From NCBI GenBank assembly GCA_022616535.1, contig JAKEEM010000048.1:1-61102 (forward strand): 61,102 bases of DNA, in the 5' to 3' direction. Positions 44,428 to 44,517 of the stretch are shown here, in pieces; within the stretch, counting starts at the first letter, position 1, and every line of letters starts with the position of its first letter. The position numbers and the translations under genes were made by a program. The stretch comes from Chlorobiota bacterium (GTDB lineage: Bacteria > Bacteroidota > Ignavibacteria > Tepidaquicellales > OLB5). Under the pieces are notes generated by a model that was not told the DNA's origin, did not search any database, and saw only the letters and a program-made list of their open reading frames with translations.

Positions 44428-44497
44428 GGTGATGGAGTTCACCTAAAACTGCTTGAAAACCTGCCTGCTGCAGGCAGGCGAAGCTGATGACTCCTGC
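44428..44497 (+). ncRNA. Fluoride riboswitch (crcB motif)
   Basis: The aptamer is clear: GGTGATGGAGTTCACC (44428-44443), a GGTGA/TCACC stem around the conserved loop; then TAAAACTGC; and the 3' hallmark CTGATGACTCCTGC (44484-44497). The conserved core matches known crcB RNAs. The variable stem between is made of GCTT/GAAGC capped by the perfect palindrome CCTGCCTGC-T-GCAGGCAGG (44460-44478), a copy of a dispersed repeat. It lies just upstream of crcB and DUF190, known fluoride-resistance genes. Confidence 0.92.
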
Positions 44498-44517
44498 TGA
44501 AAAAAAATTGGCAGGGG
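44491..44517 (+). terminator. Terminator of the fluoride riboswitch
   Basis: CTCCTGC (44491-44497) pairs with GCAGGGG (44511-44517) in a seven-base stem, followed by TTTTTTGTTTT. The left arm is also part of the conserved aptamer end, so ligand binding and the terminator should exclude each other. That fits an ON switch for fluoride. Confidence 0.8.

What the first reader, a model, noticed from the sequence alone, without database searches (positions are those of the whole stretch)
44428..44517. Fluoride riboswitch whose variable stem is a mobile palindrome
The aptamer core is intact, and its variable stem is capped by CCTGCCTGC-T-GCAGGCAGG, the same repeat found elsewhere, including inside a coding region. 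A mobile repeat has thus apparently entered a functional RNA at a place where it only lengthens a helix. The terminator arm overlaps the conserved 3' end.
Basis: partly seen in the sequence, partly recalled or inferred. Interest (0 to 1): 0.65.

Follow-up and report, generated by a model that had tools for sequence, protein, structure and literature searches.

The report
Fluoride riboswitch carrying a mobile palindrome
A fluoride-sensing RNA switch in front of a fluoride-exporter gene has one of its hairpin tips lengthened by a 19-letter palindrome that is scattered in at least 38 identical copies around this bacterium's genome, a small natural example of a selfish repeat landing in a working RNA where it does little harm.

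Summary
Window 44419-44503 is a fluoride riboswitch (RF01734, 55.3 bits; cut-off 34) ahead of crcB and DUF190. The loop of its P3 hairpin holds CCTGCCTGCTGCAGGCAGG exactly (44460-44478).

The palindrome occurs in 38 perfect copies (36 with the same central T/A) and about 68 near copies in this 2.9-Mb genome. Only 27 of 395 sampled genomes of the phylum have any exact copy, and none but this one has more than 6. Paralogous empty sites within the genome show that copies arrived as exact 19-nt insertions without target-site duplication. They often abut TTYG (22 of 57; 1.3 expected). The riboswitch copy fits: it abuts TTCG on the bottom strand, and without it P3 is an ordinary GCUU-GAAAACG-AAGC hairpin.

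A scan of 84,980 species found no other fluoride riboswitch with this arm in P3. Same-family crcB genes have no fluoride riboswitch, so no orthologous empty site exists. Folding predicts that aptamer and terminator are undisturbed.

Two cautions. The only crcB has a 1-nt frameshift in a G run, either a sequence error or a recent pseudogene. No mobilising enzyme was identified. The case is a new variant of a known kind: small mobile repeats inside structured RNAs.

The parts
44419..44503 (+). Fluoride riboswitch aptamer (RF01734)
   Evidence: cmscan 55.3 bits, full model
44428..44443 (+). First stem-loop GGUG...CACC; its loop carries the 5' pseudoknot strand GGAGU (44434-44438)
   Evidence: Rfam alignment, folding; pseudoknot assignment from known fluoride aptamer architecture
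44451..44484 (+). P3 hairpin: GCUU (44451-44454) / AAGC (44481-44484), with the repeat in its terminal loop
44460..44478 (.). 19-nt palindrome CCTGCCTGCTGCAGGCAGG, a copy of the dispersed mobile repeat; abuts CGAA (TTCG on the bottom strand)
44490..44494 (+). 3' pseudoknot strand ACUCC, shared with the 5' arm of the terminator
44489..44527 (+). Intrinsic terminator: 12-bp stem 44489-44500/44508-44519, then a U-rich tract
44547..44923 (+). crcB fluoride channel gene; reading frame broken by one missing base in a G5 run (44765-44769), otherwise intact to its stop
   Evidence: PF02537, comparison with same-family CrcB, frames
44957..45295 (+). DUF190 (COG1993) gene, intact, the next gene downstream of crcB
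   Evidence: PF02641
35418..35436 (+). Degenerate copy of the repeat (2 mismatches) inside a DUF1287 lipoprotein-like reading frame, abutting TTTG
37835..37853 (+). Degenerate copy of the repeat (2 mismatches), about 90 nt from a tRNA gene (37945-38021)

Best explanation
This is a fluoride riboswitch of the transcription-ON type. Fluoride stabilises the pseudoknot between 44434-44438 and 44490-44494, which holds the 5' arm of the terminator, so transcription continues into crcB-DUF190; without fluoride the terminator forms. A copy of a 19-nt dispersed mobile palindrome then inserted, exactly and without target duplication, at the 3' side of the P3 loop next to CGAA (TTCG on the other strand). 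Being self-complementary, the insert folds on its own (-13 kcal/mol) and adds a second hairpin on top of P3, through a small internal loop. It lies away from the ligand site and the pseudoknot. It also lies upstream of the pseudoknot's 3' strand, so the interval between completion of the aptamer and completion of the terminator is unchanged. Shown: aptamer, terminator, repeat identity, copy number, empty sites, target preference and predicted folds. Inferred: fluoride response, neutrality of the insertion and the mode of transposition.
For: Aptamer and insert position. 38 perfect copies, 36 with the same centre. Paralogous empty sites without target duplication, e.g. L063 against L107 and L066 (102 bp, no gap), L070 against L004 (102 bp, no gap), L011 against L006, and three insertions at the same base of the GATTCCCGCYTTCGCGGGAATGAC palindrome family. 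TTYG adjacency in 22 of 57 against 1.3 expected, P 2e-21, and the riboswitch copy conforms. With the 19 nt taken out, P3 has the length and shape seen in other riboswitches of the class. The terminator pairs at 0.998 with or without the insert, and the insert does not pair with it. No other fluoride riboswitch among 84,980 species was found to carry this arm.
Against: There is no orthologous riboswitch without the repeat: no other species of the genus is held, and same-family crcB leaders lack a fluoride riboswitch. The insertion is therefore inferred from paralogous sites. crcB is frameshifted in this assembly, so continued selection on the switch is not certain. No binding or expression data exist.
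Confidence: 0.85

Rival explanations
1. Relic: the crcB unit is decaying. The riboswitch is no longer under selection, and the repeat landed in, or survives in, a dying locus.
For: The only crcB gene of the genome is frameshifted by one base in a G5 run.
Against: The aptamer scores 55.3 bits, among the best of about 97 hits in 391 class genomes. The terminator is intact. The remaining crcB reading frame and DUF190 are intact. A single-base homopolymer change is also a typical assembly error.
Confidence: 0.2
2. The palindrome is a functional, selected part of this riboswitch, for example a P3 nucleation, pausing or RNA-stabilising element, rather than a tolerated passenger.
For: It gives the P3 segment one of the most stable predicted folds among those compared (-15.8 kcal/mol; only the far longer G568 segment exceeds it).
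Against: The identical sequence sits at dozens of unrelated sites. No other fluoride riboswitch of 84,980 species was found with it. Other P3 helices have mostly 3-6 bp. It has no predicted effect on the terminator.
Confidence: 0.08
3. The palindrome is not mobile: copies arose by local mutation, or it is a protein-binding site retained by selection.
For: Imperfect copies exist, and no dedicated transposase was tied to it.
Against: 36 of 38 perfect copies share the same central base. Several sites have paralogous empty counterparts that differ by exactly the 19 nt. The copies land in unrelated sequence contexts, including other palindromes.
Confidence: 0.05

Closest known systems
Fluoride riboswitch (crcB motif, RF01734) with transcription terminator, as in Bacillus cereus crcB (PMC11077080)
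   Same: Core sequence, pseudoknot strand shared with the terminator arm, position ahead of crcB
   Different: P3 loop carries a 19-nt dispersed repeat
REP / RAYT elements (GTAG- and CGTC-tagged palindromes; PMC3733652, PMC8266576)
   Same: Short dispersed palindrome, mostly intergenic, presumed non-autonomous; insertion without target duplication resembles single-strand HUH transposition
   Different: No GTAG or CGTC tag, no RAYT gene within 1.5 kb of a copy, only 19 nt, and about 40-70 copies
Pneumococcal BOX element between two T-box riboswitches (PMC3049150)
   Same: Mobile repeat in a riboswitch-bearing leader that appears still to regulate
   Different: BOX lies between two aptamers, not inside one
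Repeats inside structural RNAs, such as STRR repeats in cyanobacterial RNase P RNA and Rickettsia palindromic elements (own knowledge, not checked here)
   Same: Mobile repeats tolerated in peripheral helices
   Different: Other repeat families, and not riboswitches

Membership tests
Fluoride riboswitch RF01734 | Covariance-model score above the gathering cut-off over the full model | tested here: met
   55.3 bits against 34, positions 1-64
Fluoride riboswitch RF01734 | Pseudoknot between the first loop and the 3' strand | tested here: met
   GGAGU 44434-44438 is complementary to ACUCC 44490-44494 (sequence)
Fluoride riboswitch RF01734 | Leader of a fluoride-resistance gene | tested here: met
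   CrcB PF02537 44 nt after the aptamer end, although frameshifted, then DUF190
Fluoride riboswitch RF01734 | Binds fluoride and controls transcription | not testable with these tools
   needs in-line probing or in vitro transcription
REP/RAYT palindrome (GTAG or CGTC super-families) | GTAG or CGTC tag at one end | tested here: not met
   Flanks of 57 copies show TTYG-type target bases, no tag
REP/RAYT palindrome (GTAG or CGTC super-families) | Associated RAYT (Y1_Tnp) gene flanked by the repeat | tested here: not met
   5 Y1_Tnp genes in the genome; no copy of the repeat in their 1.5-kb flanks
Small mobile repeat | Filled and empty sites differing by the element | tested here: met
   Paralogous empty sites, exact 19 nt, no duplication

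The most novel reading that the evidence does not exclude
A minimal 19-nt palindrome with no internal coding or tags moves as single-stranded DNA, inserting exactly 3' of YYG (most often TTYG) without target duplication and often within hairpin-forming DNA. Hairpin tips of structured RNA genes, here a riboswitch aptamer, are therefore both suitable targets and tolerant sites, so that such repeats are a source of new helix extensions in functional RNAs.
Probability: 0.3. Interest if true: 0.6.

Novelty: new variant of a known kind. Interest (0 to 1): 0.42.

Why it matters
It is a natural insertion experiment in a well-understood RNA switch. It shows which helix of the fluoride aptamer can take a foreign hairpin, and it gives a concrete route by which peripheral helices of RNAs can grow. 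The repeat itself, with exact duplication-free insertion and a short target preference, is a testable lead on how very small palindromes spread. No earlier report of a mobile repeat inside a riboswitch aptamer was found in the paper searches made here; that is not proof that none exists.

Tried and rejected
Orthologous empty site: sought among 14 same-family genomes; their crcB genes (66-80% identical) have no fluoride riboswitch.
RAYT as mobiliser: five Y1_Tnp genes found, none with the repeat nearby; their neighbouring palindromes are different.
Autonomous element bounded by two copies: closely spaced copies (L073, L013) enclose no transposase-like reading frame, although L013 holds a short GIY-YIG-like frame (identification by eye).
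Second case of a repeat in P3: the longest P3 seen (G568, L172) is not a repeat in its genome.
Repeat inside other structured RNAs: about 40 other copies' surroundings scanned with Rfam, none inside an RNA.
Interference with the terminator through the shared CCTGC/GGCAGG words: predicted pairing about 0.
Literature: no paper with this sequence as a repeat.

Full report
What is there. Rfam places a complete fluoride aptamer at 44419-44503 on the + strand, 55.3 bits against a cut-off of 34, with 23 nt in the P3 loop that the model does not have. Those bases contain CCTGCCTGCTGCAGGCAGG exactly, at 44460-44478. The 3' pseudoknot strand ACTCC (44490-44494) is part of the 5' arm of a 12-bp terminator at 44489-44519, followed by a T-rich tract. 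The next gene is crcB (PF02537) and then DUF190 (PF02641).

More than chance. In shuffles of the window the palindrome is expected 0.01 times with three mismatches; there are three. In the whole genome (2,892,708 bases, 77 contigs) there are 38 perfect matches and 66-69 within two or three mismatches, with 0-1 for the reversed pattern. Thirty-six of the 38 share the central T/A. Of 395 genomes sampled over the phylum (this one included), 27 have any exact copy, and the largest number outside this genome is 6. The repeat has therefore multiplied in this lineage.

Is it mobile? Flanks of 57 copies show no conserved sequence that belongs to the repeat, but the adjoining bases are not random: TTYG touches one side of 22 copies, 1.3 expected from its frequency in the window, P 2e-21; YYG 36 against 6.3. 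The background is a simple frequency in this window, and some copies lie in larger repeats, so P is approximate. Empty sites exist within the genome. The palindrome GATTCCCGCTTTCGCGGGAATGAC and its variants GATTCCCGCCTTCGCGGGAATGAC and GATTCCTGCTTTCGCAGGAATGAC occur uninterrupted, and each also occurs with the 19 nt inserted at the same base, after TTTCG or CTTCG, with nothing duplicated (L088, L090, L063). With the 19 nt taken out, the flanks of L063 match L107 and L066 over 102 bp at 91% without a gap; those of L070 match L004 over 102 bp at 96% without a gap; L011, L002 and L074 have similar partners. These are paralogous sites, and L107 and L066 are overlapping stretches of one place, so I count about five independent filled/empty comparisons. 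Exact insertion without duplication resembles single-strand transposition by HUH enzymes, but that is inference. The repeat lacks the GTAG or CGTC tag of REP families, and none of the five Y1_Tnp genes of the genome has a copy within 1.5 kb.

The riboswitch copy. It reads GCTTGAAAA-[19 nt]-CGAAGC. On the bottom strand the base string before the repeat is TTCG, the preferred neighbour. Taking the 19 nt out in a script leaves GCUU-GAAAACG-AAGC, a 4-bp stem with a 7-nt loop. The segment between the first loop and the conserved TGATGACTCC is then 25 nt; most other riboswitches compared here have 19-31 nt. I compared about 40 from related genomes; P3 is mostly 3-6 bp, but a few are long (up to an 86-nt segment in G568), so this helix tolerates extension. 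The long G568 case is not a repeat in its genome.

Is this found elsewhere? A scan of 84,980 species for the repeat's right arm within 20 nt of the conserved riboswitch 3' end gave 13 matches, none of them a fluoride riboswitch by eye or by Rfam. By my estimate about 20 chance matches were to be expected. Near relatives of this genome may be left out of that collection. In the same family, 11 crcB genes of 66-80% identity have no fluoride riboswitch in front, also at a permissive threshold.

How it most likely works. Known fluoride riboswitches of this architecture let the terminator's 3' arm displace the pseudoknot unless fluoride is bound (PMC11077080). Here the same elements are intact. Folding of successive lengths shows the first stem-loop, then the repeat's own hairpin, then P3 closing below it, then the terminator; the terminator's pairing is 0.998 with or without the insert, and its arms do not pair with the repeat although they share CCTGC/GGCAGG. 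The calculation cannot treat the pseudoknot or the ligand. Because the insert is transcribed before the pseudoknot's 3' strand, it does not change the distance between that strand and the terminator's 3' arm. I therefore expect a near-normal fluoride response.

Caution on function. crcB lacks one base in a run of G at 44765-44769 relative to all same-family CrcB proteins compared; before and after it, the protein is intact. It is the only crcB found in the genome. An assembly error and a recent pseudogene cannot be told apart here. If the gene is dead, the repeat would sit in a riboswitch under relaxed selection.

Where the other copies are. Most perfect copies lie between genes or at the very ends of reading frames. 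About 40 of the surroundings were scanned with Rfam; no other copy is inside a structured RNA, one is in the spacer between 23S and 5S rRNA (L076), and several are beside tRNA genes. One RNA in about 50 copies needs no special attraction to RNA genes.

Novelty. A mobile repeat in a riboswitch-bearing leader has been described (BOX between two T-boxes, PMC3049150), and repeats within structural RNAs are known to me from cyanobacterial RNase P RNA and Rickettsia (own knowledge). Inside a riboswitch aptamer I found no report in the papers searched. I rate it a new variant of a known kind, interest 0.42.

Noticed in passing
window 44765-44769: crcB reading frame broken by one missing G in a homopolymer run; the rest of the gene is intact. 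Sequence error or recent pseudogene.
   Followed up: partly
L097-L112; also L063, L088, L090, L066: A second dispersed palindrome, GATTCCCGCTTTCGCGGGAATGAC, about 16 near copies in this genome, itself a repeated target of the 19-nt repeat; the same nesting occurs in same-family genome G001 (L048).
   Followed up: partly
L076:1474-1492: A perfect copy of the 19-nt repeat lies in the spacer between 23S and 5S rRNA genes.
   Followed up: no
L063:1198-1544: A perfect copy lies about 110 nt from a cobalamin riboswitch.
   Followed up: no
window 36049-36105: Tandem CTCAATTAACTCAATGAACTC-like minisatellite, paralogous to empty sites of two copies of the repeat (L064, L076).
   Followed up: no
window 37514-37546: Another near-perfect palindrome, AAACCTGTCAGGTTTT-T-AAGACCTGACAGGTTT.
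   Followed up: no
L018:1809-1871: Two REP-like hairpins (GGACAGACA...TGTCTGTCC and CGACAGACA...TGTCTGTCG) next to a Y1_Tnp gene, unrelated to the 19-nt repeat.
   Followed up: no
L172: Fluoride riboswitch with an 86-nt P3 segment holding two extra hairpins in genome G568, next to another fluoride riboswitch; not a repeat there.
   Followed up: partly
L189-L195: The 19-nt palindrome also occurs exactly in 7 IMG/VR viral contigs, once in two copies.
   Followed up: no
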